A stretch of 64,000 nt of DNA from Pseudomonas alloputida (GTDB lineage Bacteria; Pseudomonadota; Gammaproteobacteria; Pseudomonadales; Pseudomonadaceae). Below, piece after piece: positions 6,155-31,235 of the stretch (within the stretch, counting starts at the first letter, position 1; each line of letters starts with the position of its first letter). The notes under the pieces are model-generated. The model did no database searches. It worked only from the letters and a program-made list of their open reading frames with translations, and was not told where the DNA came from. Made by a program: the position numbers and the translations under genes. Location of the stretch: positions 841,501 through 905,500 of the forward strand of contig NZ_CP128540.1 in NCBI RefSeq assembly GCF_021283545.2, read 5' to 3'.

Positions 6155-6190
6155 ACCCCTCCCAGCAGGGAGCTGCGAAGGTACGAGCTC

Positions 6191-7387: not shown

Positions 7388-7427
7388 ACTGCGCCGTGCT
7401 GGTGCACTGAATATCGGGAGATGAATC

Positions 7428-8525: not shown

Positions 8526-8528
8526 GCC

Positions 8529-10043: not shown

Positions 10044-11137
10044 GCGACGCCACGCCAACGCCGCCCCCATCAGCCCCGGATCGCGGCATACGCTGGGTGC
10101 TGCTGCTGATTGCCGTCAGCCTGCTCTGGTACTTGCTGGCTGACCGCTATACGCCGTACACCCAGCAAGCTCGCCTGCAGGCTTACGTAGTCCCGGTGGC
10201 CGCCGAAGTGGCCGGGCAGATCAAGCGTGTGGCCGTAGGCAACAACCAGGAGGTGCGCCAGGGCGATGTGCTGTTCGAACTCGATCAGGAGCAGTACCGC
10301 ATTGCCTTGGCCCGTGCCGAAGCCGACCTCGATACCGTGCGGCGGCAGATCGGCGCCAGTACCGCTGGTATCGATTCGGCGCAAGCAGCGCTGGTGGCCG
10401 CCCAGGCCAACGAACGCAAGGCGCGGCAGGACGCCGAGCGCCTCAAACGGCTGATTGACGAAGACCCCGGTACGGTGTCGGTGCGCCGTCTGGAAGGCGC
10501 CCAGGCCACCCGTGACCAGGCCATCAGCCAAGTGGCGGCGGCCCGCGCCGAGGTGGAGCGCGCCCGTGAGCAGCAGGGCGGGGCACAGGAAGACAACGCC
10601 CAACTGCGCAGTGCCGCGGCCAATTTGGAAAAGGCCCGCCTGGACCTTGCCCGTACTGTGGTGCGTGCCGACGCAAACGGCCTGATCACCGACCTGCGCA
10701 CAGACGTTGGCCACTATGTCGGGGCAGGTAGCCCGATGATGACCCTGATCAGTATCCATGACGTGTGGATAAGTGCCGACATGACCGAGAACAACCTCGG
10801 TCGCTTGCGCCCTGAAACCCCGGTGCTGGTGGTGCTCGATGCGCTACCGGGCACCGTGTTGAAAGGGCGTATACGCAGCATTGGCTATGGCGTGAGCGTG
10901 GGGCAGAGCACGCCGCCGGGTACGCTGCCGACCGTGCAGAATAGCCGCGAGTGGCTGCGTTCGGCGCAGCGCTTTCCGGTGATTATCGAACTGGAGCGCG
11001 ATCAGCTTCAGGACAAGACCGTGCTGCGGGTCGGTGGGCAGGCCGAGGTCATGGCCCTGCCTAGCGAAGGCAACCCACTGAACCTGCTGGGCCGGTTGTT
11101 CATGTGGCTGATGAGCTGGCTGTCGTATGCCTATTGA
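10040..11137 (+). CDS. HlyD/EmrA-type membrane fusion adaptor
   Basis: 365 residues. One N-terminal membrane anchor (WVLLLIAVSLLWYLLADRYTPYT) is followed by the biotinyl-lipoyl half-motif (YVVPVAAEVAGQIKRVAVGNNQEVRQGDVLFELD), a long coiled coil rich in Ala, Arg and Glu (about residues 95-200), the second lipoyl half (VRADANGLITDLRTDVGHYV) and a beta-barrel domain. It bridges the inner-membrane pump and the outer-membrane factor. It overlaps the genes on both sides, which points to translational coupling in the operon. Confidence 0.95.
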   Translation: MSDATPTPPPSAPDRGIRWVLLLIAVSLLWYLLADRYTPYTQQARLQAYVVPVAAEVAGQIKRVAVGNNQEVRQGDVLFELDQEQYRIALARAEADLDTVRRQIGASTAGIDSAQAALVAAQANERKARQDAERLKRLIDEDPGTVSVRRLEGAQATRDQAISQVAAARAEVERAREQQGGAQEDNAQLRSAAANLEKARLDLARTVVRADANGLITDLRTDVGHYVGAGSPMMTLISIHDVWISADMTENNLGRLRPETPVLVVLDALPGTVLKGRIRSIGYGVSVGQSTPPGTLPTVQNSREWLRSAQRFPVIIELERDQLQDKTVLRVGGQAEVMALPSEGNPLNLLGRLFMWLMSWLSYAY

Positions 11138-12149
11138 ATTGCGCCGCCTGCGCGCACTGCGCCTGGCCTGGGGCGTGGCGCTGTGCCTGGCGGTGAGCTT
11201 TGGTATCGGCTTGCCGGTGCCGATCCTGGCGCCGGTGTTTGCGGTGCTGTTGCTGGCCATGCGCAGTCAGCCATTGCCCCTGCGTGCAGAACCGGCCCTT
11301 GCGCTACTGGTGCTGCTCGCTTGCGGCAGCGGGTTGCTGCTGATTCCGCTGTTGCGCCATGCTCCGTTGGCCGGGGTGTTACTGGTCGGGGTGGGTGTTT
11401 TCCTGACCTTGCGCTATGCGCTGAAGGGCGGCAACGGCCTGCTGGCCAACCTGCTGGTGGTCGGCCTGACCATGATCGCTGCTGCCGGCACCAGTGACTT
11501 CACCCTGGCATTGTCGGTGGTCGAAGCGCTGGCCAAAGGCATGCTGCTGGCAGTGCTGGGCACGTCGGTGGTGCATACGTTGTTCCCCGAACCTGCCAAT
11601 GCGCCAGCACCGCCGGTGCCGCCGCTGCTGGGTAGCGAGCATGTCAGCTGGGTGGCGCTGCGTGCCACGTTGATCGTGATGCCGGCCTTTCTGCTGGCAT
11701 TGATCGCCCCTGATCAGTACATGCCGTTGATCATGAAGGCCGTGAGTGTGGGGCAACAAGCAGGCGAAACCCGCGCGCGGCACGCCAGCCGGGAGCTGAT
11801 CGGTTCAACCTTGCTTGCCGGGGTGTTGGCGATAGCGCTGTGGGTAGCGCTGAGCCTGTTCGTTCACCTGTGGATGTTCTTCTTGTGGGTACTGCTGTTC
11901 GCCCTTTGGCAGGCTCGGCGCCTGTACCAGGCGGTGCCGAGCCGGCAGAGCCCGGCGTACTGGGTCAGTTGCCTGACGACCATGTTGATCTTGCTGGGGC
12001 AGTCGGTGCAGGACAGTGCAGGTGGGCAGGATGTGTACAAGGCATTTGCGGTGCGTATGGCGCTGTTTCTGGCGGTGTCGGTGTATGCCAGCGCCATGTT
12101 GATCTGGATTGACCGGCTTCGGAGTCGGCGCGGGCTTCTTCGCGGTTAA
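11127..12149 (+). CDS. DUF2955/FUSC-like inner-membrane exporter component
   Basis: 340 residues with about ten hydrophobic segments in two blocks (around residues 10-145 and 180-330), the arrangement of DUF2955, which is related to FUSC/aromatic-acid exporters such as AaeB. It starts 11 bases before the adaptor stop. Together with the adaptor and outer-membrane lipoprotein it should form a three-part efflux pump. Substrate unknown; AaeB-type relatives export aromatic carboxylic acids. Confidence 0.85.
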   Translation: MPIELRRLRALRLAWGVALCLAVSFGIGLPVPILAPVFAVLLLAMRSQPLPLRAEPALALLVLLACGSGLLLIPLLRHAPLAGVLLVGVGVFLTLRYALKGGNGLLANLLVVGLTMIAAAGTSDFTLALSVVEALAKGMLLAVLGTSVVHTLFPEPANAPAPPVPPLLGSEHVSWVALRATLIVMPAFLLALIAPDQYMPLIMKAVSVGQQAGETRARHASRELIGSTLLAGVLAIALWVALSLFVHLWMFFLWVLLFALWQARRLYQAVPSRQSPAYWVSCLTTMLILLGQSVQDSAGGQDVYKAFAVRMALFLAVSVYASAMLIWIDRLRSRRGLLRG

Positions 12150-19129: not shown

Positions 19130-20851
19130 TTAAAGAGTCTCGGATCCGGTCAGGCGCAAGAGGGTCTTGCGCAGGATAGGGCTGTCGGCCTGGGCTTCGA
19201 AGCCCTTGGCCCATACCTGGCGGGCTTCGCGGCGCTTGCCGTTGGCCCACAGCACTTCGCCCAGGTGGGCGGCCACTTCGTGGTCGGGGAAGTTGGCAAA
19301 GGCCTGGCGCAGGTAGGTTTCAGCTGCGTCGAGGTTGCCCAGGCGATAGTTGACCCAACCCAGGCTGTCGAGCACTGCCGGGTCATCGGGGGTCAGCTGG
19401 TGGGCTTTGTCGATCAGCGCCTTGGCTTCGGTATAGCGGGTGGTGCGGTCGGCCAGTGTGTAGCCAAGGGCGTTCAGGGCCATGGCGTTTTCTGGCTCGC
19501 GGGTGATGATGGCGCGCAGGTCTTTTTCCATCTGCGTCAAATCGTTGCGCTTCTCGGCCAGCATGGCGCGGGTGTAAAGCAGGTTGAGGTCGTCCGGGTA
19601 GCGCTGGATGGCTTGTTGCAGCACCTGGTTGGCCTGGGCGTCCTTGTTGTTGTTGCTGTAGCTTTCCGATTCGATCAGGAATAGCTGGATGGCGTAGTCT
19701 GGCTGGGCTTCGCGCGCGTCGGCGAGCAGGCGCGAGGCCTCGGTGCCGCGGCCGTTGGCGATCAGGATGTCGGCCTGGCGCAGTTGTGCCGGCAGGTAGT
19801 CTGGGCCCGGGCCGACCAGGGCGTATTCACGCAGAGCGCCAGCAGGGTCGTGGCGCTCCTCGTGGATGCGGCCCAGGTTCAGGTGCGCGGCGTCAACGTA
19901 GCTGTCGCGCTCGACCAGCTCCTGCAAGTAGCCTTCGGCTTCATCCCAGTCTTTGTTCTCCAGGCACACCAGCGCCAGCGAGTAGCGCAATTCGTCATCA
20001 TCGGGGTATTGCTGGACCAGGCTGATGAACTCGCCTTTGGCATCGGCGATACGGTCCTGTTCGACCAGGGTGCGAGCGTAAGTCAGGCGCAGGCGTTTGT
20101 CGTCCGGGTTGTCGCGAATCGCCCCGCGCAGCAGTGGCAGGGCCTCCGGACCTCGGTCCAGGGCCTGCAGCAGACGGGCGCGCAGCAGGATCGGGGCGAC
20201 TTCGCCGTTTTGTGCCGGGTGCGACTCGAGCAGTTCCAGGGCTTCTTCGGTCTTGCCGTCCTGGTTCAGCAGCAGGGCCTTGCCGAATATCAGCTGGCCG
20301 TTGTCGGGGTATTTCACCAGCAGGCGTTCGAAACTGTGTAGCAGGCCGTCGCGGGTGCTCTGGTCGGTTTCGGCTGCGGACAGGGCGAGGAAGTCGAAGT
20401 GGGTGTCGCCCTGGCCCTGCAGTACCTTTTCCATGTAGGTCATGGACTCGTCATAGCGACCGGCGCGGGCCAGCTGGATGGCCGCGGCGCGCTGGGCGTC
20501 GAGGTTCTGCGGGTCGTTGCGCGCCCAGACCAGTGCATTCTCCAGTGACGGCTCGTCGGCGCCGAGATACTCGGCAATGCGGTAGGCGCGCTCGGAAACT
20601 GCGGGGTCCTGGGTTTTTGCCGCCTGATCGGTGTAGTTGGCCAGGGCGATGTCGAAACGGTTGCGCTGGCCGGCCAGCTCTGCCACCAACAGGCTATAGA
20701 GTGTGTCCTGCTTGAACGAGCCATACACCACGGGCTTTTCCGCCTCGCCCTTGCCAGCTTCGGCGACGGGAGGCTCGGCCTTTTGCGGGGCCAGGCTTTG
20801 GCAGCCCTGTAGCAGGGCGAAGGCAAGCAGCAATGCGTATGGTTTGTTCAT
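19130..20851 (-). CDS. TPR-repeat lipoprotein
   Basis: 573 residues starting [17 protein letters not shown], a lipoprotein signal with Cys at about residue 17. The rest is a chain of tetratricopeptide repeats from about residue 50 to the end, e.g. [27 protein letters not shown] and [23 protein letters not shown], typical of Pseudomonas outer-membrane-bound TPR proteins next to lolB. It likely serves as a protein-interaction scaffold in the periplasm; no precise role is known to me. I preferred ATG 20851 over 20890 because the signal peptide begins there. Its upstream region is where the accessory island begins. Confidence 0.92.
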
Positions 20852-21081: not shown

Positions 21082-21181
21082 GTAAGCGTCCGGCGAACTC
21101 ACCTTCCGAACTCCAGCATTAAGGGCGATGGTGTCCGCGTATTTTTAAGCGGACGCGATCACCCTTATCGCCAGGATTTCC

Positions 21182-21502
21182 ATGCGCCAACGAAGCTCTT
21201 ATCCGAAACCATTCAAAGCCCAAGTCGTTCAGGAATGCCTGCAACCTGGCGCGACGGTGTCCAGTGTTGCCATCAGCCACGGCATCAATGCCAACGTCAT
21301 CCGCAAATGGCTGCCGCTCTATCGAGATCAGCCTGCAGCAGCTTCACTACCGGCTTTCGTCCCGCTAAAAGCCCCACCTAAACGGCCAGTCGAGGCGTCA
21401 GTGATCATCGAGTTGCCCATGGCCGGGCAAGTGATCACGGTGAAATGGCCAACCTCAGATCCTGAGGGCTGCGCGCAATTTATCCGGGCTGTCTCTCAAT
21501 GA
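21182..21502 (+). CDS. tnpA: IS66 accessory protein TnpA (OrfA)
   Basis: 106 residues with the helix-turn-helix of IS66 OrfA/IS3-like transposase A near the N terminus (FKAQVVQECLQPGATVSSVAISHGINANVIRKWLPLYR). It is thought to help DNA binding in IS66 transposition. The stop overlaps the tnpB start by four bases (ATGA). Confidence 0.92.
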   Translation: MRQRSSYPKPFKAQVVQECLQPGATVSSVAISHGINANVIRKWLPLYRDQPAAASLPAFVPLKAPPKRPVEASVIIELPMAGQVITVKWPTSDPEGCAQFIRAVSQ

Positions 21503-21834
21503 TCCGCATCGATGCGATCTGGCTGGCCACCGAGCCGATGGACATGCGCGCCGGTACCGAAACCGCTTTAGCCCGAGTAATCGCGGTGTTTGGTGCGGCG
21601 AAGCCGCACTGCGCTTATCTGTTCGCCAATCGCCGGGCCAACCGGATGAAAGTGCTGGTGCACGACGGCGTGGGCGTCTGGCTTGCCGCACGGCGACTGA
21701 ACCAAGGCAAGTTCCACTGGCCCGGCATTCGCCATGGCTGCGAGGTCGAGCTCGACAACGAACAACTCCAGGCGTTGGTACTGGGCTTGCCGTGGCAGCG
21801 CGTTGGCGCCGGCGGTGTGATCAGCATGCTGTAA
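21499..21834 (+). CDS. tnpB: IS66 accessory protein TnpB (OrfB)
   Basis: 111 residues matching the IS66 Orf2/TnpB family: WLATEPMDMRAGTETALARV, then NRRANRMKVLVHDGVGVWLAARRLNQGKF. It is required for transposition of many IS66 elements but its biochemical role is not known. It is translated by overlap with tnpA. Confidence 0.93.
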   Translation: MIRIDAIWLATEPMDMRAGTETALARVIAVFGAAKPHCAYLFANRRANRMKVLVHDGVGVWLAARRLNQGKFHWPGIRHGCEVELDNEQLQALVLGLPWQRVGAGGVISML

Positions 21835-21897
21835 ACGCCGGCCATTTGGCCGGTCTACTTGTCGTCGTCCCGCGCCTGCTCTGGCACAATCGGCGGC

Positions 21898-23433
21898 ATG
21901 ACTTTCTCGCCCAACCTCGACCAGATGACCCCGGAACAGCTTCGTGCCTTGGCGGCACAGGCGTTGCAGTTGCAATCACAGGTCGAGGCGATGAGCAGGA
22001 AGATCCAAAACGATGAAATCCTCATCGAACAGTTCAAGTTCGAAATCGCCCTGCTCAAACGGCACAAGTTTGCCAAGCGCAGCGAGCAAATCAGCCCGGC
22101 TCAAAGCAGCTTGCTGGATGACCTGCTCGACACAGACCTTGAAGCTATCGAGGCCGAGCTAAAACAGCTCCTCCCAGCTGCGCCACAGTCCGAACCACGG
22201 CAATCCCCGAAACGTGCGCCCTTGCCGCCGCAGTTTCCACGCACCGTCATTCGCCATGAACCCGAAAACACTCAGTGCGCCTGTGGTTGCCAGCTCCAAC
22301 GCATCGGCGAAGACGTCAGCGAAAAGCTGGATTACACGCCGGGCGTGTTTACCGTCGAGCAACATGTGCGGGGCAAATGGGCCTGCCGTCAGTGTGAAAC
22401 ACTGATCCAGGCGCCGGTGCCGGCGCAGGTTATCGATAAAGGTATCCCGACCTCAGGTTTGTTGGCCCACGTGATGGTGGCCAAGTTTGCCGATCACTTG
22501 CCGCTGTATCGGCAGGAGAAGATTTTTGGCCGCGCCGGGCTGGCAATTGCTCGCTCGACCCTGGCGCAGTGGGTTGGACAAACCGGTGTGCGACTTCAGC
22601 CGTTGGTCGATGCACTGCGTGAAGCGGTGCTGAACCAGGGTGTGATCCACGCCGACGAAACACCGGTGCAAATGCTTGCGCCAGGCGAGAAGAAAACCCA
22701 CCGGGCTTATGTCTGGGCCTACAGCACCACGCCGTTTTCGGCGCTCAAGGCGGTGGTTTACGACTTCAGCCCAAGCCGTGCTGGCGAACATGCGCGCAAC
22801 TTCCTGGGTGACTGGAACGGCAAGCTGGTCTGCGACGACTTCGCTGGCTACAAAGCCGGGTTTGAACAAGGCATCACTGAAATCGGTTGCATGGCCCACG
22901 CCCGTCGCAAGTTTTTCGATCTGCATGTGGCGAACAAAAGCCAATTGGCCGAACAGGCGCTGCACTCGATCAGCGGCCTGTACGAGGTCGAACGCCAGGC
23001 GCGAGACATGAGTGATGAAGATCGTTGGCGAATACGTCAGGAACTAGCGGTACCGATCAGCAAAACACTGCATGAGTGGATGTTGGCCCAGCGTGACCTG
23101 GTGCCCAACGGATCAGCCACGGCCAAAGCCCTCGATTACAGCCTGAAACGCTGGGTAGCGCTGACGCGCTACCTGGACGATGGGGCTGTGCCCATCGACA
23201 ACAACCAGGTCGAGAACCAGATACGGCCATGGGCACTCGGGCGCTCGAACTGGTTGTTTGCCGGGTCGTTGCGCAGCGGCAAACGCGCGGCGGCGATCAT
23301 GAGCTTGATCCAGTCGGCACGCATGAATGGGCATGATCCGTATGCCTATCTCAAGGATGTGCTGACGCGGCTGCCGACCCAACGGGCCAGTGAGATCGGG
23401 CAGTTGCTGCCGCATCAGTGGGTACCGGCCTGA
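21898..23433 (+). CDS. tnpC: IS66 family DDE transposase TnpC
   Basis: 511 residues from ATG 21898. An N-terminal leucine-rich coiled coil (LRALAAQALQLQSQVEAM..EIALLKRHKF) is followed by a zinc-binding part (CACGC..CRQCE) and the DDE catalytic core: Asp in VIHADETPVQM, Asp in LVCDDFAGY and Glu in NNQVENQIRPWALGR. The length is normal and no frameshift is visible, so the enzyme should be active. Confidence 0.95.
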   Translation: MTFSPNLDQMTPEQLRALAAQALQLQSQVEAMSRKIQNDEILIEQFKFEIALLKRHKFAKRSEQISPAQSSLLDDLLDTDLEAIEAELKQLLPAAPQSEPRQSPKRAPLPPQFPRTVIRHEPENTQCACGCQLQRIGEDVSEKLDYTPGVFTVEQHVRGKWACRQCETLIQAPVPAQVIDKGIPTSGLLAHVMVAKFADHLPLYRQEKIFGRAGLAIARSTLAQWVGQTGVRLQPLVDALREAVLNQGVIHADETPVQMLAPGEKKTHRAYVWAYSTTPFSALKAVVYDFSPSRAGEHARNFLGDWNGKLVCDDFAGYKAGFEQGITEIGCMAHARRKFFDLHVANKSQLAEQALHSISGLYEVERQARDMSDEDRWRIRQELAVPISKTLHEWMLAQRDLVPNGSATAKALDYSLKRWVALTRYLDDGAVPIDNNQVENQIRPWALGRSNWLFAGSLRSGKRAAAIMSLIQSARMNGHDPYAYLKDVLTRLPTQRASEIGQLLPHQWVPA

Positions 23434-23464
23434 CTTACGCAAGGTGAGTTGGGCGGACGCTTAC

Positions 23465-23710: not shown

Positions 23711-24436
23711 TCACCGGTCAGGATAGATCCGCTCGTATAGTGCCACGTCGCTGGGGCAGTCAATTTCTCCCCAGGGAGCGTGCGTCGCCACGCCGGCGAC
23801 TGGAAAACCTTCGCTGACGAGTGTCCCTAAAAGCGATGTCATGTCAGTTTGGTCGCGTGCCTGAGGCGTGAGCCCTTGCAATTGCTTTTTCAACGCCTGC
23901 CAACCCGCTGGCGTGACTTTGAACAAGCCCATGTACTGGCCCTGAATGACTTCAAGACTGGTAGCGGTCTGTCCAATAGCGCTCACCCATCCATCGACTA
24001 AGCGGAAGTTCTCCAGATCTGGTAGCGGATCGTTGAAGCGTTGCTGCCAGAGACGCACTGCAGCGGGATCGTAGCCCAGGACAATATCGGCTGGATGGTT
24101 AATTAGCTCGGATACTAGGGTGCTGTCGTAGAAGATGTCACCGTAGCTAACAAGGCAAGGCTCTGCGCTCAACCAATCGCTGGCGCAATTTAGAGAGCTG
24201 AAAATACCGGAGCTGTGCCAGCGGTGGTTGTAAAACAAAGTGTCGGCGAATGGTGCAAGCATTTCGCTTCGATAGCCTGCAACGATGCCAACCTCGCTGA
24301 CATCGCATCGACGGAGCGTTTCAATCGCGCGCTGTAGCAGTGGCACACCGTTAAAGGGTACCAAGGCCTTGGGGCGTTCATCGGTCAGGGCTTGTAAGCG
24401 GCTCCCGCGACCAGCAGCAAGAATGACGGCTTTCAT
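23711..24436 (-). CDS. LicC/Cj1416-like cytidylyltransferase (putative CTP:phosphoglutamine cytidylyltransferase)
   Basis: 241 residues from ATG 24436. It is a nucleotidyltransferase of the GT-A type, in the LicC/phosphocholine-cytidylyltransferase group: MKAVILAAGRGSRLQALTDE with RPKAL (phosphate and Lys contacts), NHRWHSSGIFSSL (matching the N.Y..TNNIYSL segment of LicC), the metal site VSYGDIFYD, and a C-terminal WGEIDCPSDVALYERI. The upstream gene overlaps by four bases (ATGA). Together with the two upstream genes it matches C. jejuni Cj1416, which makes CDP-L-glutamine from phosphoglutamine and CTP. By domain alone it could be a phosphocholine or aminoethylphosphonate cytidylyltransferase; the neighbours favour phosphoglutamine. 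Confidence 0.82.
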   Translation of the reverse strand: MKAVILAAGRGSRLQALTDERPKALVPFNGVPLLQRAIETLRRCDVSEVGIVAGYRSEMLAPFADTLFYNHRWHSSGIFSSLNCASDWLSAEPCLVSYGDIFYDSTLVSELINHPADIVLGYDPAAVRLWQQRFNDPLPDLENFRLVDGWVSAIGQTATSLEVIQGQYMGLFKVTPAGWQALKKQLQGLTPQARDQTDMTSLLGTLVSEGFPVAGVATHAPWGEIDCPSDVALYERIYPDR

Positions 24437-25035
24437 GAAAAAGCTCCGAAGGCATGTCGCACGCGTTGAATATCCAATGGATCGGCAGGTAGTTCTCGCT
24501 CGGGGTGCCACATGATCCCGGTATGCCGACGGTGGTCGTCATACACAGCCTCGATCACGCCGTCGTCGGCCAGGGCTAGTACGCGGTAGCCGTCGGGCGC
24601 CTCGCGAAAGCCGTATTCATGATAGGAATTCACTCGCCGCCGTTGTTCTTGCATGTTGATCATGTGCTCACCTACATGGCCGGCCAAGCGTTCCAAAGTG
24701 CCGCCAGCTCGCGTCAACATTACCTGCATGCCGCGGCATACACCGAGCACCGGAAGCCGTAGATTTTCCGCAAGATCAAGCAAGACCCTCTCAGTGACGT
24801 CGCGTGTGTCGGCTGTCCCACTCAGGGCCTGGCAACTCCCTCCACCGGTAAGCAGGAGGCCCTGAGGGCGCAATGATTGGACTAACGCCATGCTGACTCT
24901 TGGATCGTTTGGAAGGTACAGCGGGGTCAGCCCACATTGGTCTAAGAATTCAACCCAGCGCTGGTCGAGCGCGTCCCGCCATTCCTGGCGTTCGGCGTTG
25001 AACTGCCTGAGCATGGTCATCCCAACCAAAATCAT
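24433..25035 (-). CDS. Class I glutamine amidotransferase-like hydrolase (Cj1417-like, putative CDP-glutamine hydrolase)
   Basis: 200 residues from ATG 25035. It is a peptidase C26/PuuD-type domain: LLTGGG near residue 60, the nucleophile Cys in VLGVCRGMQVML, and the His of the triad in GIMWHPERE. It overlaps the kinase stop and the cytidylyltransferase start by four bases each (ATGA), so the three are translationally coupled. Alone it would be named gamma-glutamyl-GABA hydrolase. In C. jejuni, Cj1417 of this family cleaves CDP-L-glutamine to glutamate and cytidine diphosphoramidate, and the gene order is the same. No polyamine genes are near to support PuuD. Confidence 0.82.
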   Translation of the reverse strand: MILVGMTMLRQFNAERQEWRDALDQRWVEFLDQCGLTPLYLPNDPRVSMALVQSLRPQGLLLTGGGSCQALSGTADTRDVTERVLLDLAENLRLPVLGVCRGMQVMLTRAGGTLERLAGHVGEHMINMQEQRRRVNSYHEYGFREAPDGYRVLALADDGVIEAVYDDHRRHTGIMWHPERELPADPLDIQRVRHAFGAFS

Positions 25036-26201
25036 GCCAGCACCTGTATACGCCGCTCGGCGCAGTCGAGCAGCAGGCTTGTCGCCGCCAATAGGGTTTT
25101 GAATCGAGTATCGCCCACGCCGATAGCTGCGGGAATGGCGAACTCTCGGGCTCGGATCGACATATGCGAGTTCTCGCCTCCGTAGGCGGTGATGAAACCA
25201 GCAATGCGGTGGGTAAAAATCCAATCAAAACCCGGATCAGCGTTTTCGATTAAGACAATGCAACCCTCTATGTCCGGTGCCAATTGCCCTGGAAGCACAT
25301 GGGCCACCCGCGCATGAGTGGCACTTCGAGTGATGAAGTTGGGATTGCACCAGTGCACTCGATGGCCGAATAGATCTTGCGGCTGACAAATGATGCTTGG
25401 CGTACGGACTAACTGCGTTTCATACCAGCGGCTGCGGTTGTGGGCAATCGCTTGGTGCAAACGTTTGCGATCAATGTCGGCGTAACCGCGGGTAAAGTCG
25501 GTGATTTGCGCAAAGCTGAGTTGGTCGCGGTCAAGACCATGTACCTCACCCCAATCGCATAGTGAGCGCAAAACATCCGAAACAAACGCTGCATAGAGGT
25601 ATTTGAGCTTCTCGCGCGATGCAATAGCGGCTTGAGCAAATTGGAGGAACTGCTCGGCGGAAACGTTAAGACCGCACTGGTCGAAAGCTTGCTGCATGGC
25701 GTTGACCTGGGCCCGAGATACAGTTAGCCCGTTCGTAGATTTTGGGGGGCGTTGTAATGGGCGCTGCCAGTCAAAATAACTCTCCGGAGTCTCGTCGTAG
25801 CGCGCCACACGTATATCGTAGGTACCTGGCCGGACATGACCGTGGAGCTTTAGGAAATCGTCCTTATGCAACGTCTGGAAATCGCTGGCCATCTCGCGAC
25901 CGATACTATTGACCCCTCCGGTCACATGATCGATGAAACCGGCAGATACTACCCCCGCTGTTTCCAGCGATTTAATTATTGCGGTACCTACGAACGCTGC
26001 ACGGGCAGCGCCAGCGAATACTTCAGCGACCACGTTGGCCGCCGATAGAGCATTCCTCATACGTTGCAAGGACTCGCCCCGAGGTTGCCTCGCCATTAAA
26101 CTCTGCACCTTGTCAGTAATACTCGGTAGACGTGTCAGGTCGGAGAAGAACGGGCCGCTGGGGGAAATAATGTGCTCGGTCAACTGGCGTAGCTCGTTCA
26201 A
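25032..26201 (-). CDS. Glutamine kinase-like protein, C-terminal half with phospho-histidine domain (after in-frame TAG)
   Basis: 389 residues in exactly the same frame as the preceding half, separated by one TAG at 26204-26202. The first codon after it is TTG, the only early start available, with no good ribosome site. Residues 1-300 are a helical linker/substrate domain. The last ~60 hold the PEP-utiliser swivelling domain with catalytic His in GGENSHMSIRAREFAIPAAIGVG (His346 here, 743 in the joined chain). Joined length is 786 codons including the TAG. The closest known role I can name is the L-glutamine kinase Cj1418. Either the gene is broken, the halves work as two subunits, or TAG is read through. 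Confidence 0.75.
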   Translation of the reverse strand: MNELRQLTEHIISPSGPFFSDLTRLPSITDKVQSLMARQPRGESLQRMRNALSAANVVAEVFAGAARAAFVGTAIIKSLETAGVVSAGFIDHVTGGVNSIGREMASDFQTLHKDDFLKLHGHVRPGTYDIRVARYDETPESYFDWQRPLQRPPKSTNGLTVSRAQVNAMQQAFDQCGLNVSAEQFLQFAQAAIASREKLKYLYAAFVSDVLRSLCDWGEVHGLDRDQLSFAQITDFTRGYADIDRKRLHQAIAHNRSRWYETQLVRTPSIICQPQDLFGHRVHWCNPNFITRSATHARVAHVLPGQLAPDIEGCIVLIENADPGFDWIFTHRIAGFITAYGGENSHMSIRAREFAIPAAIGVGDTRFKTLLAATSLLLDCAERRIQVLA

Positions 26202-27392
26202 CTAGCATTCGTGCTGCCTGGTACTAAGAGTCCGGAGCGCCGGCAGCGCGGCAGCGGCATCGGGGCTAGTAAGCTCTGGCGTGAAGCAAGTAGGAATGAT
26301 CGCGAACTCGATCTTGTCATGCAGATGAGGATGCATGGCCAAGTACTCGCCGCACTGTTCGACTACGCGCTCGGCAACATCTTGAGGTACCGAGGCCGGG
26401 ATGAATGACTCGATGCTGTGGGCAATGCAGATGTAAGGAGAGCCACCCACCTGGTACATCAGCGGTTTGCGCCGCAGATCCCGGTAGCCGTATCGGAATC
26501 TGGCAGAGGCCCAATTAAGGTCAGTGATCAGCTCCTTATATAGCGAGTAGGCTAGCGCTCGCGGCTTGATACCGATCATTTCCGCCGGGTTCCAGTCCGG
26601 CATAAGGCCAAGGAAGGCGGTCGACGTAGGACGCAGATGGTGTTGCTTGCAGATCAGCTCTTCGAGCTGGGAAACCTCGTGCTCCAAAACTTTGCGTAGT
26701 TGGGCGTCGGCAAGTGCGCTGGCATTACGGGGCCCATCTGCGGTCATGGGACGTACTTGGAATAGCAGAGGGCCATCGACAGTGATCGCGAACTCTATGT
26801 CCAAGGCATCGCGCCCGGTTAGAACTTGTACCTCTTCGAGCAAAGCAAACAACCCTGGTAATTCCGCAGGCTCGCTTGCCGCTTCGCTGCCAAGGGAGAC
26901 GAAAGCATGCACAGTCTCGTTGCCGGTAGTGACACCGTCAGTACTGGCACCTGGTACATAGTCAACTACGTAATATGGCAAACCCGTCTCTGGATCACGG
27001 GTCATCGCCACTCCGCTGGCCAATACTCCTCTCGCCATCTGCTGCACCAGCACATCATCGCGCTCGCGAGCTAGGCCGTAGGAGGCGATCACCGTCTTGA
27101 TGGCTTCGCCGAGTGCCTGGCCGCCACACACATCTAGAACTGACGCGTACATTCCTGCACCGGAATGGCCGTCGCGGTCTTCGGCTAGGCAGCTGGATCG
27201 TACAATCAGCGGCTCATCGCCAAAGAACGCCTGACAGTGCGCGATCACTGCCTGCCAGTCCTCCCGCCACTGTGCCACGGTGAATCGATGAAGGGGCAAC
27301 ACTTGCCCGGTGCTCAGAAGTGGTGCCAGTTGCTGCAGGGTATCGGCCTTGCCGGAAAAAGCGAACACGGGAGAAGGATTTACTGAGTGCAT
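26202..27392 (-). CDS. Glutamine kinase-like protein, N-terminal half with PEP-synthase-type ATP-grasp domain
   Basis: 396 residues, ATG 27392 with AGGGAAGA upstream. It carries the PPDK/PEP-synthase N-terminal ATP-binding domain: LIVRSSCLAEDRDGHSGAGMY, DVLVQQMARGVLASGVAMTRDPETG and LDIEFAITVDGPLLFQVRPMT. After about residue 230 it continues into a helical region and stops at TAG with ...STRQHEC. ATP-grasp and His domains in one chain are found in PEP synthase, rifampin phosphotransferase and the glutamine kinase Cj1418, where the chain phosphorylates the amide nitrogen of glutamine. The neighbours decide for Cj1418. The gap to the upstream ATP-grasp gene is 59 bases. Confidence 0.78.
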   Translation of the reverse strand: MHSVNPSPVFAFSGKADTLQQLAPLLSTGQVLPLHRFTVAQWREDWQAVIAHCQAFFGDEPLIVRSSCLAEDRDGHSGAGMYASVLDVCGGQALGEAIKTVIASYGLARERDDVLVQQMARGVLASGVAMTRDPETGLPYYVVDYVPGASTDGVTTGNETVHAFVSLGSEAASEPAELPGLFALLEEVQVLTGRDALDIEFAITVDGPLLFQVRPMTADGPRNASALADAQLRKVLEHEVSQLEELICKQHHLRPTSTAFLGLMPDWNPAEMIGIKPRALAYSLYKELITDLNWASARFRYGYRDLRRKPLMYQVGGSPYICIAHSIESFIPASVPQDVAERVVEQCGEYLAMHPHLHDKIEFAIIPTCFTPELTSPDAAAALPALRTLSTRQHEC

Positions 27393-27451
27393 ATGTCTTC
27401 CCTAATCAGTCGAATCAGTCCGTTGCAGGGGGCTGTCAGTTCATGTCAGGT

Positions 27452-28762
27452 TTAAGCCAATTCGGCGCCGGTATAAGTCGCGAGTTCAAGGCCGTAAAGT
27501 GAGGACAGCTCGCGTAGGAAGCGATTGCCCTTTTTCGCCGCAGAGTGGGGGCAGTCGTCCTCAACGATGACGTGGCCAATTGTGCCGATGTTGCCGCTAT
27601 AGACGTTTACCGCCTGGCCAGGCGCAACGTGGGCGGTGCAAAACCGGATGGCGTACTTGTCCAGTAATGGCTGTAGGGTGTCGGGGTCGTAGTCGTGGGC
27701 GATATGACCGCCATTGCGGGAGGCGACAGTTACGACGCTACCTGCGCGCTGAAGCACTGAGTCGTCAATTAGAATGGGCTCGCCCAGATGCAGACGGACT
27801 AGCAGTTCGAACGGGTCGATGCCGGTCAGCATCCGGTACATCTGCGGCGCTACGCTACCCATCATGCGTGCGTTGATCTCCACTAGACAGGGCCCTTTGG
27901 CATCGCGCAACAGTTCAACATGATAAAGGCCAACATCCAGCCCCAGAGCGCTGAACACTGCCTGCACATATGCTTTGATCTCGTCGCGCTGTGCTGCGTC
28001 AAGGCCTGACGGCATGGTCGCGGTCATTTCTAATATTTCGCTATGGTCGGCGCGGAAACGGATGGTGGTCGCAAAGCAGGAGACCTTGGTGTCCTGGACG
28101 ATGACTTCCGCTGAATGCAATGTACCGTCGATGTATTGCTCGACCAGATAGTCGCGGCTTACCAAGTGGTCGATCATAGGATCAGCACCCTTGCGACTCT
28201 GGCGCAGCTCGGCGAGAAAGGCGTCAAAGTCGGTCTGGCTATGGCATATGGCGGAAAACTGCTTGGCGAACCCTCGGGTCGGCTTGACAACGAATGGCAG
28301 CGACAAACTCGGAACGACCCCATTGATCAGTTGCTCCTCGCTTAGTACTTCAAAATCAGGAGAGCGTAGTCCGTGTGCCCGCAGCGTTTCGCGCAGTCGA
28401 CTCTTGTATACCGCCCCGCACAGAGCTTCGTACCTCGGGTAGAGGGTGCCGATGCGCTGGGCCTCCCGCGCCACCGGTACTATGGCTGCTTCAGAGGTAG
28501 AGATCAGGGCGTCAATAGGGCGCTCTGCGTGCAGGTTGGCCAACAACCGGCTGAATTCGCCGCCTTCCAGATTATCGATACGCAAATAAGCATCCACATA
28601 TCGCAGGTAAGGCTCGAGACGGGAGGTGTCGTCCTTGATCGAGATCGTCAGGAACGAGGCGTCGCGCTGATGAATGAAGGTGACGTGGCAGCCAAGCCGT
28701 TTGGCTGCCTCAAAAGCCAGCAGGCCGCTTACGGTGCTGTCGACGAAAACCACGTGTTTCAT
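27452..28762 (-). CDS. ATP-grasp ligase, carboxylate-amine (amino acid/peptide) type
   Basis: 436 residues. It is an ATP-grasp enzyme of the BacD/carbamoyl-phosphate-synthase-L type: an N-terminal Rossmann-like domain (MKHVVFVDSTVSGLLAFEAAKRLG), the ATP-binding strands FVVKPTRGFAKQFSAI and LVEQYIDGTLHSAEVIV, and the Mg-binding CLVEINARMMGS. Such ligases activate a carboxylate as acyl phosphate and join it to an amine, often an amino acid. The phaseolotoxin cluster also has ligases of this kind from recall. It follows the transporter fusion by 12 bases. Substrates cannot be told from sequence. Confidence 0.85.
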   Translation of the reverse strand: MKHVVFVDSTVSGLLAFEAAKRLGCHVTFIHQRDASFLTISIKDDTSRLEPYLRYVDAYLRIDNLEGGEFSRLLANLHAERPIDALISTSEAAIVPVAREAQRIGTLYPRYEALCGAVYKSRLRETLRAHGLRSPDFEVLSEEQLINGVVPSLSLPFVVKPTRGFAKQFSAICHSQTDFDAFLAELRQSRKGADPMIDHLVSRDYLVEQYIDGTLHSAEVIVQDTKVSCFATTIRFRADHSEILEMTATMPSGLDAAQRDEIKAYVQAVFSALGLDVGLYHVELLRDAKGPCLVEINARMMGSVAPQMYRMLTGIDPFELLVRLHLGEPILIDDSVLQRAGSVVTVASRNGGHIAHDYDPDTLQPLLDKYAIRFCTAHVAPGQAVNVYSGNIGTIGHVIVEDDCPHSAAKKGNRFLRELSSLYGLELATYTGAELA

Positions 28763-28774
28763 TGGAACCTCGGA

Positions 28775-29392
28775 TTACCAGGGATGAAAGTAAATAGTGC
28801 TGAGCCCGAACAGCATTGCGAAGCAAGCGACCGTCGAAGGTGCGCCATACTTGGGAATTCTCAAGCTGGTGACCTGGAGGATGCCGACCAGGGCCATTAG
28901 GCCGACGATCACACCGGCACCGTAATGCCCGGCCGATAACCCCATCAGCGCCAGCGCAAAGACAAATCCTGAATATGTGGTGGGTAGCCCCTGATATCCC
29001 CCGCCAGCCGATGTGCCGGGCATGCCAAACAGCGATAGCCGCAAAATGGCCGTGAAAACCAGAGTTACTGCGGCCAGCGTGGCCGAAAGAGACTGGTCGA
29101 GGATTAGGATGACAAGGGCTGGCGTGATGCTGAAATTGAGCAAGTCGGCAAAACTGTCTAGATGCTTGCCGAAGGCCCGTTGCGCGCTGTTCGCAGCCAG
29201 GTAGCGCCGGGCTATGTGGCCGTCAAGGAAATCGAGCATCGCGGCCAGGCAAATCATCGTCGCCGCCAGAACAAACCGTCTTTGCAACGCAAAATAAACA
29301 GTACCGAAGGCCAGGCCGATATTGAACATTGTTAATATGTTCGCCAAATCCAAAAGACGGACGAACGGAAACACACGCGCCAATGTGGGCAT
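28775..29392 (-). CDS. Possible separately translated CDP-alcohol phosphatidyltransferase (internal start)
   Basis: The in-frame ATG at 29392 (Met 407 of the fusion) has a perfect AAGGAG six bases upstream. The 205-residue product from it begins exactly where PssA-type enzymes begin, just before the first helix, and contains the complete DG..AR..G..D..D motif. This suggests that two genes became fused by loss of a stop codon, or that the cell makes both the fusion and the free enzyme. Confidence 0.5.
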   Translation of the reverse strand: MPTLARVFPFVRLLDLANILTMFNIGLAFGTVYFALQRRFVLAATMICLAAMLDFLDGHIARRYLAANSAQRAFGKHLDSFADLLNFSITPALVILILDQSLSATLAAVTLVFTAILRLSLFGMPGTSAGGGYQGLPTTYSGFVFALALMGLSAGHYGAGVIVGLMALVGILQVTSLRIPKYGAPSTVACFAMLFGLSTIYFHPW

Positions 29393-30610
29393 ATTGTTCT
29401 CCTTGAAGAAATTATTTAGACAGGTTGTTTTCCCTTGATCGCGAACTGTCGTTCGCAGGGCGTTGGATGCGACGAAATAGAAAGCAACGAAGATAATGCT
29501 CGTGCTGAACAGGCCAACATACTTAACCAGTATTGAGCCGGCGAAGATGGTGATTATCATGCCTAAGTAGACCCCCGCATACTGGACAGATGCCATCAAC
29601 GGCATGGCGCTGGTAGGTGTGCTCCTGACAAGATCGGCTTGCAATTTGAAAAATGCCAGTTCGAAAAAGAATATGTAGAGAAAATACGCGATGTAACTGG
29701 ACTGAATATCATGGCCGAACGCTGCGAGCATCATGAACAGGCCGCTGACTACAGCCATCGGCATAGGTAGCGGTTGCACATTACACTTGCCCAAACGATA
29801 GAACAGTACTGCGCCCACCAAAGCTGCCACACTATTGACGGCCTGCAACAAACCGACATACACCTCTCCCAAGCCCAGCACATAGGCCGGTAACAGCACC
29901 CTGGACACATTGAAGAAGCCCTGAAAAAGGCTGACGAAGACGATGAACTGATAGAGGCTGAGGCGTAACGCGGGATACTCATGCAAAAGCGAACCAAGGG
30001 CAGTCAATAGTCTTGGTGCGACCTGCACGGTGATCGGAGGCTTTGTTGGCGCAGGTAGTAGATAGGCCGCCAAAGCCGCGATGGAAAAAAGACTGACAGT
30101 AATGAGCAGGGCTAACCCAGGCGTCATGTTGGCTTTGAACAGTAGCAGACTGATGCCTGCCAGGCCGCCGGCAATGAATTGTGCGGTGAGTGTCAGAGGC
30201 ACTGAGCTGGCGATTTGCGCACCCGGGAAATAACACTTGATGGCAACAATACGCCCTACCCGTTGCAGCGCATCCAGGGTGCCAATGACTACCGCGCCTA
30301 ACACGACGACTTCCACATGATGTGGCAGGATTTTGTAGGTGGCCGCCGCGCAGCCCAGCGACAGCAAGTTGGCACTCCACAGCAAGGTGCGAGGTGCTAG
30401 ATAGTCAGCCAGTCGGTAGATTGGAGCGACAAGAATTACCGGTAGAACCATTGGTGCAAACAGCACCACTTGGGAAAGTATTAGACTAGCAGTATGAGCA
30501 TAAATATAGTAGGAAAAATAAATATAGCTCAGCGTAGAGGCCGAAATAGCACACAAGTTAACGCCCCAAAGAAGCACTGAGTGCCTACGAGATACTGCAA
30601 ATTCTTCCAT
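28775..30610 (-). CDS. MFS transporter fused to a CDP-alcohol phosphatidyltransferase domain
   Basis: 611 residues. Residues 1 to about 400 are an MFS-like permease with about 12 helices. From about residue 407 (MPTLARVFPFVRLLDLANILTMFN) it becomes a PssA-like CDP-alcohol phosphatidyltransferase with the motif DFLDGHIAR...FGKHLDSFAD, which keeps all four Asp; the AR-to-Gly spacing is 12 residues instead of the usual 8. It is the first gene of the operon. The second half could also be made alone (see 28775-29392). The enzyme half should act at the membrane surface on a CDP-linked donor; the MFS half may export the product. Confidence 0.82.
   Translation of the reverse strand: MEEFAVSRRHSVLLWGVNLCAISASTLSYIYFSYYIYAHTASLILSQVVLFAPMVLPVILVAPIYRLADYLAPRTLLWSANLLSLGCAAATYKILPHHVEVVVLGAVVIGTLDALQRVGRIVAIKCYFPGAQIASSVPLTLTAQFIAGGLAGISLLLFKANMTPGLALLITVSLFSIAALAAYLLPAPTKPPITVQVAPRLLTALGSLLHEYPALRLSLYQFIVFVSLFQGFFNVSRVLLPAYVLGLGEVYVGLLQAVNSVAALVGAVLFYRLGKCNVQPLPMPMAVVSGLFMMLAAFGHDIQSSYIAYFLYIFFFELAFFKLQADLVRSTPTSAMPLMASVQYAGVYLGMIITIFAGSILVKYVGLFSTSIIFVAFYFVASNALRTTVRDQGKTTCLNNFFKENNMPTLARVFPFVRLLDLANILTMFNIGLAFGTVYFALQRRFVLAATMICLAAMLDFLDGHIARRYLAANSAQRAFGKHLDSFADLLNFSITPALVILILDQSLSATLAAVTLVFTAILRLSLFGMPGTSAGGGYQGLPTTYSGFVFALALMGLSAGHYGAGVIVGLMALVGILQVTSLRIPKYGAPSTVACFAMLFGLSTIYFHPW
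29398..29403 (-). promoter_or_regulatory. Internal Shine-Dalgarno AAGGAG inside the MFS-transferase frame
   Basis: AAGGAG on the minus strand, six bases before the in-frame ATG at 29392. It is the strongest ribosome site in the operon and lies at the domain boundary. Confidence 0.6.
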
Positions 30611-31000
30611 TGCTCGCGCCTATTATATAGCTTCCTGCCATGCACGAAGCATACCCTGCATTGGAAATCGTTTTTAAGATAAGCTTAACAAAACTGAAAT
30701 ATAAAAATGCTTCTTGTTGGTGTGTCACCAAGTAAGTGTGCATCATTCCAGTTCATCATTACCGCTGCTAAACCTCATCAATAAAACTTCTAAACATCGG
30801 CAAAATTAATAGCTGGAAACCGACTGACTGATAGCTCGATGCAATCCAACTCGTATCGCTGTCTCAGTGAGGAATATCGATGTAGCGGTGAAGACTAGGT
30901 CCGGAAGGAGGGTAGGGCAACAGTTGGGCATGTATTTGGGAAATGGACTACAAGACTGTGGATAAATCTTTTGGAAATATGTCAAAAGTCTTCTCGACCC
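30611..31000. other. AT-rich gap upstream of the island operon; no gene seen
   Basis: About 390 bases of visibly AT-richer DNA hold no coding frame of note. The operon promoter must lie here on the minus strand. A TATAAT occurs 11 bases before the ATG at 30610; if used, the leader would be only a few bases long. I see no convincing -35 partner, so this is weak. Confidence 0.4.
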
Positions 31001-31070
31001 GGTCGGCGTAGTTGGCTAGGGCGATGTCGAGCCGATGGCTCTGGCTTTTGCTCTTACTGTCGCTTCTAAG
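31001..31070 (-). pseudogene. Remnant of a second TPR-lipoprotein gene copy
   Basis: Read on the minus strand this stretch encodes RLDIALANYADRVEKTFD, against [18 protein letters not shown] in the TPR lipoprotein (plus-strand position about 20600-20660). At DNA level about 40 bases are clearly related but diverged. Nothing else of the gene is left. It lies between the island operon and hemA, the place where the TPR gene would stand without the island. Confidence 0.6.
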
Positions 31071-31097: not shown

Positions 31098-31235
31098 GCG
31101 ACTTCAGGAGGCCGAGCGTAGGGCTTGCTCCCGGGAGGACCGCGCTGCAGGCCCCATCCTCGGGCACAGCGCTTGACGGGCATCCATGCCCGTCACCTCC
31201 CTGCGCAAGGCCTGCGTTCGGCCTCCTGAAGTCGC
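31098..31235. repeat. Long intergenic inverted repeat (hairpin element)
   Basis: Perfect 18-base arms GCGACTTCAGGAGGCCGA and TCGGCCTCCTGAAGTCGC lie 102 bases apart. Inside, the stem continues imperfectly and a second hairpin GACGGGCAT-CC-ATGCCCGTC occurs at about 31170-31189. From recall, elements with this outer sequence recur between genes in P. putida genomes. It may be a mobile REP-like unit or a structured RNA. Confidence 0.7.

What the first reader, a model, noticed from the sequence alone, without database searches (positions are those of the whole stretch)
23711..30610. Candidate phosphoramidate (P-N bond) biosynthetic operon in a Pseudomonas island
Three coupled genes (PEP-synthase-like kinase, class I amidotransferase-like hydrolase, LicC-like cytidylyltransferase) have the same families and the same order as C. 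jejuni Cj1418-Cj1417-Cj1416. Those enzymes convert glutamine, ATP and CTP to cytidine diphosphoramidate. In C. jejuni the product goes to capsule O-methyl phosphoramidate; here there are no capsule genes. Instead the operon holds an ATP-grasp ligase, an MFS transporter and a CDP-alcohol phosphatidyltransferase. I infer a secreted small molecule carrying a phosphoramidate, perhaps an antimetabolite in the manner of phaseolotoxin.
Basis: partly seen in the sequence, partly recalled or inferred. Interest (0 to 1): 0.93.

Follow-up and report, generated by a model that had tools for sequence, protein, structure and literature searches.

The report
Pseudomonas phosphoramidate small-molecule gene cassette
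A soil-type Pseudomonas carries a small mobile set of genes that looks built to put a rare phosphorus-nitrogen group, so far known mainly from Campylobacter capsules, onto an exported amino-acid-like molecule, although a key gene is interrupted in this particular strain.

Summary
On the minus strand, 30610 to 23711, lie an MFS transporter, CDP-alcohol phosphotransferase, ATP-grasp ligase, glutamine-kinase-family enzyme, C26 hydrolase and LicC-like cytidylyltransferase. The same six genes, in order, occur in five other Pseudomonas genomes. The last three fit the Campylobacter Cj1418-1417-1416 families better than PEP synthase, rifamycin phosphotransferase or PuuD. Two things were missed: the kinase gene is cut by an in-frame TAG (a 99%-identical intact protein exists), and MFS and phosphotransferase are separate genes in the relatives.
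Of 40 other kinase loci examined, 21 carry the Cj1415-like kinase and/or methyltransferase expected of surface O-methyl phosphoramidate, 7 a CDP-alcohol phosphotransferase, 12 neither, none both; one strong branch of a kinase tree separates the two kinds. The phosphotransferase is closest to phosphatidylserine synthase, the ligase to L-amino acid ligases; a distant Agrobacterium vitis version adds a LysE exporter.
Best reading: a decayed copy of a cassette that moves a phosphoramidoyl group from CDP-NH2 onto a hydroxy amino acid (serine guessed), ligates and exports it. Antimetabolite action is unproven. New variant of a known kind.

The parts
29393..30610 (-). MFS transporter part (about 390-410 aa in relatives); in this window the frame runs on into the next gene
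   Evidence: homologues P0001-P0004 end in TV[AT][TI]KGKQ and two more residues, the window tail differs after residue ~394
28775..29392 (-). CDP-alcohol phosphotransferase, 205 aa, AAGGAG upstream of its ATG (by eye); complete catalytic motif; PSS-like
27452..28762 (-). ATP-grasp ligase, 436 aa, L-amino acid ligase fold
26202..27392 (-). glutamine-kinase-family gene, N-terminal half (396 aa), ends at in-frame TAG
26202..26204 (-). in-frame TAG stop that interrupts the kinase gene
25032..26201 (-). glutamine-kinase-family gene, C-terminal half (389 codons from the TTG after the stop), with the phosphohistidine-domain motif GGENSHM
24433..25035 (-). C26/class I amidotransferase-like hydrolase, 200 aa, Cys-His-Glu triad kept
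23711..24436 (-). LicC-like cytidylyltransferase, 241 aa
21082..23464 (+). IS66-family element (27-nt inverted ends, 89% complementary; three transposase genes) flanking the cassette
30998..31045 (.). 48-nt stretch 81% identical to part of the TPR gene on the other side of the island (20623-20670)

Best explanation
A six-gene, horizontally moving cassette for a secreted small molecule that bears a phosphoramidate. Inferred route: (1) kinase: Gln + ATP gives N-phospho-Gln; (2) cytidylyltransferase: with CTP gives CDP-Gln; (3) hydrolase: removes glutamate and leaves CDP-NH2 (cytidine diphosphoramidate); (4) CDP-alcohol phosphotransferase: moves the H2N-P(O)(O-) group from CDP onto the hydroxyl of an amino acid, most likely serine or a similar hydroxy amino acid, releasing CMP; (5) ATP-grasp ligase: joins the product (or its acceptor) to another amino acid; (6) MFS protein exports it. 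Steps 1-3 follow from family membership and from what is published or recalled for C. jejuni; step 4 is inferred from gene linkage and the PSS-like enzyme; the acceptor, step 5's substrates and any toxic action are guesses. In this strain the kinase gene is interrupted, so the pathway is probably silent or impaired here; intact copies exist in relatives.
For: Six-gene synteny in five other Pseudomonas loci. Kinase over the NF004508 cut-off (782 vs 501 bits, the tool itself scoring past the TAG), phosphohistidine motif kept; 9 of the 120 listed relatives are called 'glutamine kinase' by JGI and 28 of 120 carry an APS-kinase domain (both counted by eye). Hydrolase: best family NF045546; Cys, His, Glu invariant in 11 of 11. 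In 40 other kinase loci: 21 with APS-kinase-like and/or methyltransferase gene, 7 with CDP-OH_P, 12 with neither, 0 with both. Tree of 30 kinases: a 100/100 branch separates the six rows with CDP-OH_P seen beside them (plus P0210 and P0193, put in that group by similarity alone) from nine rows of the other kind. CDP-OH_P: only PSS chains match at E<=0.001; 79.6 bits to PSS vs 24 and 22 for other classes; the residues said to hold the catalytic serine in MjPSS (D62, S63, D66, F105) and R101 are kept in 6 of 6 cassette proteins (numbering from PMC8633023 passages, placed by me on the alignment). Ligase: five best structure matches are L-amino acid ligases. A. vitis/Allorhizobium plasmids: triad + LysE + CDP-OH_P. 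Chimaeribacter L007 couples a 51%-identical ligase and a CDP-OH_P to a PEP-mutase front end.
Against: Kinase interrupted and MFS frame altered in this strain. Hydrolase below its equivalog cut-off (91 of 250). CDP-OH_P below the pssA and archaetidylserine-synthase cut-offs (60 of 107 and 74 of 240), and MjPSS R104, whose fungal counterpart by my alignment affects serine binding, is L or V here, so serine is not assured; S63 is not kept in L007 and three of four rhizobial relatives. CDP-OH_P proteins usually use lipid donors or acceptors, so a lipid product is not excluded. Two kinases of the same clade (Cupriavidus, Microvirga) have no CDP-OH_P, hydrolase or cytidylyltransferase found nearby. 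Only 5 of 398 sampled Pseudomonas genomes, own included, hold the set. No self-resistance gene was recognised. No C. jejuni sequence was available for a direct test.
Confidence: 0.6

Rival explanations
1. The triad makes CDP-NH2 for a surface phosphoramidate (glycan or flagellin), as in C. jejuni, and the other genes are unrelated neighbours.
For: Many other kinase loci look like this: 21 of 40 carry the Cj1415-like kinase and/or methyltransferase; a Pseudomonas (G154, L073) has the surface-type set.
Against: No glycan, APS-kinase-like or methyltransferase gene among the six; the six genes stay together in five other genomes whose flanks, by eye, differ between L003, L004, L005 and the site shared by L053 and L054; kinases of the two kinds separate on the tree.
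Confidence: 0.08
2. A phosphoramidate lipid: the CDP-OH_P enzyme moves the phosphoramidoyl group from CDP-NH2 onto diacylglycerol, or makes a phospholipid from CDP-diacylglycerol and a pathway product; the MFS protein moves lipid.
For: The families and structures that CDP-OH_P matches are mostly lipid enzymes.
Against: [quoted passage not shown] LysE-family exporter in the A. vitis version.
Confidence: 0.15
3. On the state of this copy (compatible with the best explanation): the two kinase halves still work as a two-subunit enzyme, so the cassette is active in this strain.
For: The stop is followed directly by a TTG; Allorhizobium ampelinum S4 has the kinase as two ORFs, and the second ORF as I called it starts at the homologous residue.
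Against: A 99%-identical intact single protein exists (P0210) and all five other Pseudomonas cassettes have one ORF; no good ribosome site seen before the TTG (by eye). For S4 the RefSeq second gene starts further on.
Confidence: 0.2
4. On the state of this copy (compatible with the best explanation): a dead remnant, relic genes carried by an IS-flanked island with no present function.
For: In-frame stop in the kinase, altered MFS end, IS66 next door; the P. entomophila locus L006 has MFS and ligase but no match to the other four genes.
Against: CDP-OH_P, ligase, hydrolase and cytidylyltransferase frames are intact with motifs kept; says nothing about what the intact cassettes do.
Confidence: 0.3

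Closest known systems
Campylobacter jejuni Cj1415-Cj1418 (CDP-phosphoramidate synthesis for capsular O-methyl phosphoramidate; PMC11800397 passages)
   Same: Families of kinase, hydrolase and cytidylyltransferase and, from recall, their order.
   Different: No Cj1415-like CDP-amidate kinase, no methyltransferase, no glycosyl/MeOPN transferase; instead CDP-OH_P, amino acid ligase and exporter.
Phaseolotoxin (pht) cluster of P. syringae (PMC3927611 passages)
   Same: A P-N natural product with a PPDK-like protein (phtL) and an L-amino acid ligase (phtU).
   Different: In the part of the table seen (phtF-phtV, several entries 'hypothetical') no cytidylyltransferase, C26 hydrolase or CDP-OH_P is named; pht has an adenylylsulfate kinase (phtS) and an amidinotransferase that this cassette lacks.
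Rhizobial phosphonate clusters aepX-aminotransferase-cytidylyltransferase-CDP-OH_P (four plasmids) and Chimaeribacter L007
   Same: Cytidylyltransferase-type gene plus CDP-OH_P back end; L007 also has a homologous ATP-grasp ligase and an MFS protein.
   Different: P-C front end (PEP mutase) instead of the P-N front end.
Bacilysin BacD and the hil operon HilD/HilE (PMC3684760 passages)
   Same: ATP-grasp ligase plus exporter acting on a modified amino acid.
   Different: No phosphorus chemistry.
Phosphatidylserine synthase (MjPSS, 7b1k/7pow)
   Same: Fold, catalytic motif, most serine contacts.
   Different: Below family cut-off; R104 replaced; predicted donor CDP-NH2, not CDP-diacylglycerol.

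Membership tests
CDP-amidate module (Cj1418/1417/1416 type) | kinase of NF004508/PRK05849 over its cut-off (that this model covers Cj1418 was not tested) | tested here: met
   782 bits vs 501, one TAG inside; pieces 387 and 384 bits
CDP-amidate module (Cj1418/1417/1416 type) | intact kinase gene | tested here: not met
   in-frame TAG at 26202-26204
CDP-amidate module (Cj1418/1417/1416 type) | hydrolase over the NF045546 equivalog cut-off | tested here: not met
   91 bits vs 250, yet best family; the three other hydrolases scanned, one of them surface type, do not pass either (87, 106, 112 bits)
CDP-amidate module (Cj1418/1417/1416 type) | hydrolase Cys-His-Glu triad | tested here: met
   C98, H175, E177 invariant in 11 of 11
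CDP-amidate module (Cj1418/1417/1416 type) | cytidylyltransferase specific for phosphoglutamine | tested here: inconclusive
   LicC-like, over no specific cut-off; LWxxR(F/M) and QYxG(L/I) in 8 of 8 triad-linked proteins and in 0 of 2 phosphonate ones (by eye)
CDP-amidate module (Cj1418/1417/1416 type) | direct similarity to the C. jejuni proteins | not testable with these tools
   I could reach no C. jejuni genome or protein
O-methyl phosphoramidate surface pathway | Cj1415-like kinase and methyltransferase beside the triad | tested here: not met
   not among the six window genes and not found in the five sister loci
CDP-alcohol phosphatidyltransferase superfamily | D1xxD2G1xxAR...G2xxxD3xxxD4 motif | tested here: met
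   all four Asp kept; PF01066 55 bits, cut-off 22
Phosphatidylserine synthase | TIGR00473 cut-off | tested here: not met
   60 of 107 bits; five relatives 55-83 bits
Phosphatidylserine synthase | serine-site residues D62, S63, D66, F105, R101, R104 | tested here: inconclusive
   first five kept in 6 of 6, R104 replaced in 6 of 6
L-amino acid ligase (BacD-like ATP-grasp) | fold and ATP-grasp domain | tested here: met
   3vot E 3.9e-30, TM 0.77/0.82; 44 bits by sequence
L-amino acid ligase (BacD-like ATP-grasp) | dipeptide-forming activity | not testable with these tools
   needs an assay
Phaseolotoxin-type antimetabolite | toxic product and self-resistance gene | not tested
   no product known; no resistance gene recognised in the cassette

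The most novel reading that the evidence does not exclude
A CDP-alcohol phosphotransferase that uses CDP-NH2 as donor and a hydroxy amino acid as acceptor, making an O-phosphoramidoyl amino acid (for serine, an isostere of phosphinothricin and a glutamine mimic built from glutamine), which is masked as a dipeptide and exported: a new natural-product class with a P-N warhead, parallel to the P-C class that uses the same back end.
Probability: 0.4. Interest if true: 0.88.

Novelty: new variant of a known kind. Interest (0 to 1): 0.72.

Why it matters
A 2022 review calls the glutamine kinase C. jejuni-specific (PMC9561416, passage). Here the family is spread through the phylum (10 of 298 genomes besides the window's own in a phylum sample; 13 of 289 in a sample of one other class, unnamed but by its size probably Alphaproteobacteria) with at least two settings: surface decoration and, probably, secreted small molecules. 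It points to concrete enzymes that could show how nature makes and transfers P-N groups, and to a genome-mining handle (triad plus CDP-OH_P without the Cj1415-like kinase). No title, abstract start or passage that I saw from ten paper searches (some listings were cut, for instance 15 of 67) describes such a cluster; the library lacks most subscription journals.

Tried and rejected
PEP synthase, rifamycin phosphotransferase, prodigiosin ligases (PigC/RedH) and PuuD as identities: rejected on NCBIfam scores. A natural MFS/CDP-OH_P fusion: rejected, the five relatives have two ORFs. A plasmid-borne copy of the Pseudomonas cassette: the first-ranked ligase match on plasmids is 29% identical. Class-wide spread of the ligase: 1 of 369 genomes of the window's class at E<=1e-60, its own; Dickeya and Burkholderia relatives are known to me from protein listings only and I did not see their neighbourhoods. 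Promoters and terminators: 5 found against 5.1 expected, and 8 against 7.6. Phosphonoalanine literature: nothing held. FR-900137 as product: the review passage classes it as a hydrazide; not pursued. The first protein (window:30000-30200) was an arbitrary piece and tells nothing.
Full report
Observation. The window is 64 kb of a 6.44-Mb genome in one contig, a Pseudomonas by its relatives. On the minus strand six genes run from 30610 to 23711: MFS transporter, CDP-alcohol phosphotransferase (CDP-OH_P), ATP-grasp ligase, PPDK-type kinase, C26/class I amidotransferase-like hydrolase, LicC-like cytidylyltransferase. Kinase/hydrolase and hydrolase/cytidylyltransferase overlap by ATGA.

Two corrections. 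The kinase gene is interrupted: ORFs 27392-26202 and 26201-25032 are in one frame with a TAG between, and the NF004508 search reports one TAG inside a full-length 782-bit match, the only match at E<=1e-60 in the genome. An intact 786-aa protein (P0210, 224 member sequences, contigs up to 11 kb, neighbourhood not seen) is 98.7% and 99.2% identical to the two halves. Second, MFS and CDP-OH_P form one 611-aa frame here; the five relatives have separate ORFs, and an AAGGAG-ATG start for CDP-OH_P is still present inside the window frame (by eye).

Setting. The cassette has GC 0.556 against 0.622 around it. Beyond its 3' end lies an IS66 element with 27-nt inverted ends at 21082-23464. A 48-nt piece 81% like the neighbouring TPR gene lies at the far side (30998-31045), followed by a sequence with many copies in this genome. 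The outer neighbours are hemA (31415) on one side and the TPR gene and lolB on the other, so the block looks inserted beside hemA; I did not obtain an empty site.

The cassette recurs. With the ligase as bait, five further loci carry all six genes in the same order and strand: L003 (P. endophytica), L004 (Pseudomonas sp. UBA6562), L005 (Pseudomonas sp. 8O), L053 and L054 (unnamed G363, G203). In a sample of 398 Pseudomonas genomes six, the window's own included, have a ligase at least 70% identical; the next best is 31%. By contig coordinates G369, G144 and G345 are the genomes of L005, L004 and L006, so five of the six hold the set and one, P. entomophila L006, shows only MFS and ligase. Flanks differ by eye between L003, L004 and L005; L053 and L054 share a site. 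So it is a rare, moving unit.

What the triad is. Kinase halves: 387 and 384 bits with NF004508 (PRK05849); the next families score 35 (RedH) and 24 (PEP synthase), and the best PEP-synthase model for the N-terminal half 34. The motif GG.NSHM is invariant in 12 intact relatives. Hydrolase: best family NF045546, gamma-glutamyl-CDP-amidate hydrolase, 91 bits; PuuD-type 37; the cut-off of 250 is not reached, nor by the three other hydrolases scanned (87, 106, 112 bits). Cys, His and Glu of the triad are invariant in 11 of 11. Cytidylyltransferase: LicC (1jyk) is the second-best solved relative. NF004508 itself is named 'hypothetical protein' and I could reach no C. jejuni sequence, so the link to Cj1418 rests on: nine of the 120 listed relatives (of 3332 found) named glutamine kinase by JGI, 28 of 120 with an APS-kinase domain (counted by eye), and loci that reproduce the C. 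jejuni set with an APS-kinase-like gene and a methyltransferase. That Cj1415-1418 make CDP-phosphoramidate 3'-phosphate from glutamine, ATP and CTP I take from passages of PMC11800397; the separate reactions of Cj1416-1418 and their gene order I recall.

Two kinds of locus. I examined 40 kinase loci other than the window: the five Pseudomonas cassettes, 11 loci from a phylum sample, 11 of the 14 plasmid records that cover at least 80% of the N-terminal half (H19, H26 and H27 not fetched), and the 13 loci of a 289-genome sample of another class, unnamed but probably Alphaproteobacteria. By tblastn (E 1e-4, 1e-3 and more queries) 21 have an APS-kinase-like and/or methyltransferase gene, seven have a CDP-OH_P gene, 12 neither, none both. 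Of the 12, three (L091, L097, L098) lie among polysaccharide- or sugar-type genes by annotation. Several loci are near copies (L085/L088, L091/L098, L086/L096, the Pseudomonas set), so these are not independent counts, and some contigs are short. In a maximum-likelihood tree of 30 intact kinases a 100/100 branch separates the six rows whose CDP-OH_P neighbour I saw, together with P0210 and P0193 that I grouped with them by similarity, from the nine APS-kinase/methyltransferase rows; one of the nine (L083) is a very long branch. The Cupriavidus and Microvirga kinases sit on the CDP-OH_P side, next to A. vitis, but neither CDP-OH_P nor hydrolase nor cytidylyltransferase was found near them: a result that my reading does not explain.

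The CDP-OH_P enzyme. The full motif is present. Against solved structures the profile scores 79.6 bits with M. jannaschii phosphatidylserine synthase, 24 with PgsA and 22 with a phosphatidylinositol-type synthase. The AlphaFold model (mean pLDDT 85.8, seven sequences) matches at E<=0.001 only PSS chains (4 of 4). PMC8633023 (passages) names D62, S63, D66 and F105 as contacts of the likely catalytic serine and reports that R101E abolishes activity; placed by me on the alignment, all five are kept in 6 of 6 cassette proteins, while R104 is L or V. In C. albicans Cho1 the residue that I align with R104 (R189) is tied to serine binding (PMC8727905 passages). Outside the cassettes S63 is T in L007 and G in three of four rhizobial proteins. 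Hence serine, or another hydroxy amino acid, is the likeliest acceptor, not a proven one.

The ligase and the exporter. The ligase model (pLDDT 91.4) is closest to L-amino acid ligases, the five best chains. Relatives of the MFS-ligase pair occur in Hydrogenophaga beside a PF10014 dioxygenase (Pfam match for L010; L008 by eye), which resembles the hil operon proposed to make a dipeptide antibiotic (PMC3684760 passages). In Chimaeribacter L007 a 51%-identical ligase lies with PEP mutase, a 2-aminoethylphosphonate-type aminotransferase, a nucleotidyltransferase, CDP-OH_P and an MFS protein. Four rhizobial plasmids line up PEP mutase, aminotransferase, cytidylyltransferase and CDP-OH_P. So similar back ends serve P-C and P-N front ends.

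A distant version. Plasmids of grapevine-associated Allorhizobium ampelinum S4 and Agrobacterium vitis VAT03-9 hold kinase-hydrolase-cytidylyltransferase-LysE-CDP-OH_P, with a divergent block of LysE, asparaginase-like and class II aminoacyl-tRNA-synthetase-like genes and, in VAT03-9, a VioC/GntD-family hydroxylase (327 bits with GntD, cut-off 345). A LysE-family exporter plus, perhaps, an amino acid hydroxylase again point to a hydroxy amino acid as the thing decorated. That the divergent block belongs to the pathway is my guess.

Mechanism and limits. The best account is CDP-NH2 synthesis, transfer of the phosphoramidoyl group to a hydroxy amino acid, ligation and export. For serine the product would be isosteric with phosphinothricin; that, and any toxic action, is chemical reasoning only. 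In this strain the interrupted kinase makes activity doubtful. Allorhizobium S4 also has two kinase ORFs, the second, as I called it, starting at the residue homologous to the window's restart (RefSeq starts that gene further on), so a working split enzyme is not excluded.

Verdict. Real, well conserved, and a new variant of the CDP-amidate pathway.

Noticed in passing
L085:8914-11309 (Allorhizobium ampelinum S4 plasmid pAtS4e): Kinase present as two ORFs; the second, as called by my script, begins at the residue homologous to the window's restart after its TAG (L088 residue 414 aligns with P0210 residue 398). The related A. vitis plasmid (L088) has one ORF.
   Followed up: partly
L073 (unnamed Pseudomonas G154), 5420-10404: Surface-type set kinase-hydrolase-cytidylyltransferase-APS-kinase-like-methyltransferase next to genes that by eye look like flagellar hook proteins: possible O-methyl phosphoramidate on a Pseudomonas flagellum or glycan.
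   Followed up: partly
L084 (Cupriavidus taiwanensis plasmid) and L089 (Microvirga lotononidis plasmid): Kinases on the CDP-OH_P side of the tree without a hydrolase or cytidylyltransferase found nearby, beside a HisC-like aminotransferase and a TPP enzyme (families scanned for L084, by eye for L089); in Cupriavidus near nifK. A third use of the kinase is possible.
   Followed up: partly
L007:313-12593 (Chimaeribacter californicus): PEP-mutase cluster with nucleotidyltransferase, CDP-OH_P, ATP-grasp ligase (51% to the window's) and MFS: a P-C counterpart of the cassette.
   Followed up: partly
L088:1095-4713 (A. vitis plasmid pRvVAT039a): Divergent block with a VioC/GntD-family hydroxylase, AsnA/AsnS-like protein, asparaginase II-like protein and LysE beside the P-N genes.
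   Followed up: no
L008, L010 (Hydrogenophaga MAGs), about 8050-11300: PF10014 dioxygenase gene (Pfam match shown for L010, L008 by eye) followed by the MFS-ATP-grasp pair, like the hil operon.
   Followed up: no
window 31098-31235: Inverted-repeat element (31-nt arms) in a stretch with many copies in the same genome (31 own-genome matches to the query, itself included), next to the cassette's upstream end.
   Followed up: no
P0196, P0218, P0220 and 25 other listed proteins: Glutamine-kinase-family proteins that also carry an APS-kinase domain (PF01583), which ties the Cj1415-like step to the kinase in the surface-type pathway.
   Followed up: no
window 8529-12149: Outer-membrane efflux protein, HlyD-type adaptor and DUF2955 gene in a row: an efflux-like operon, unrelated to the finding.
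   Followed up: no
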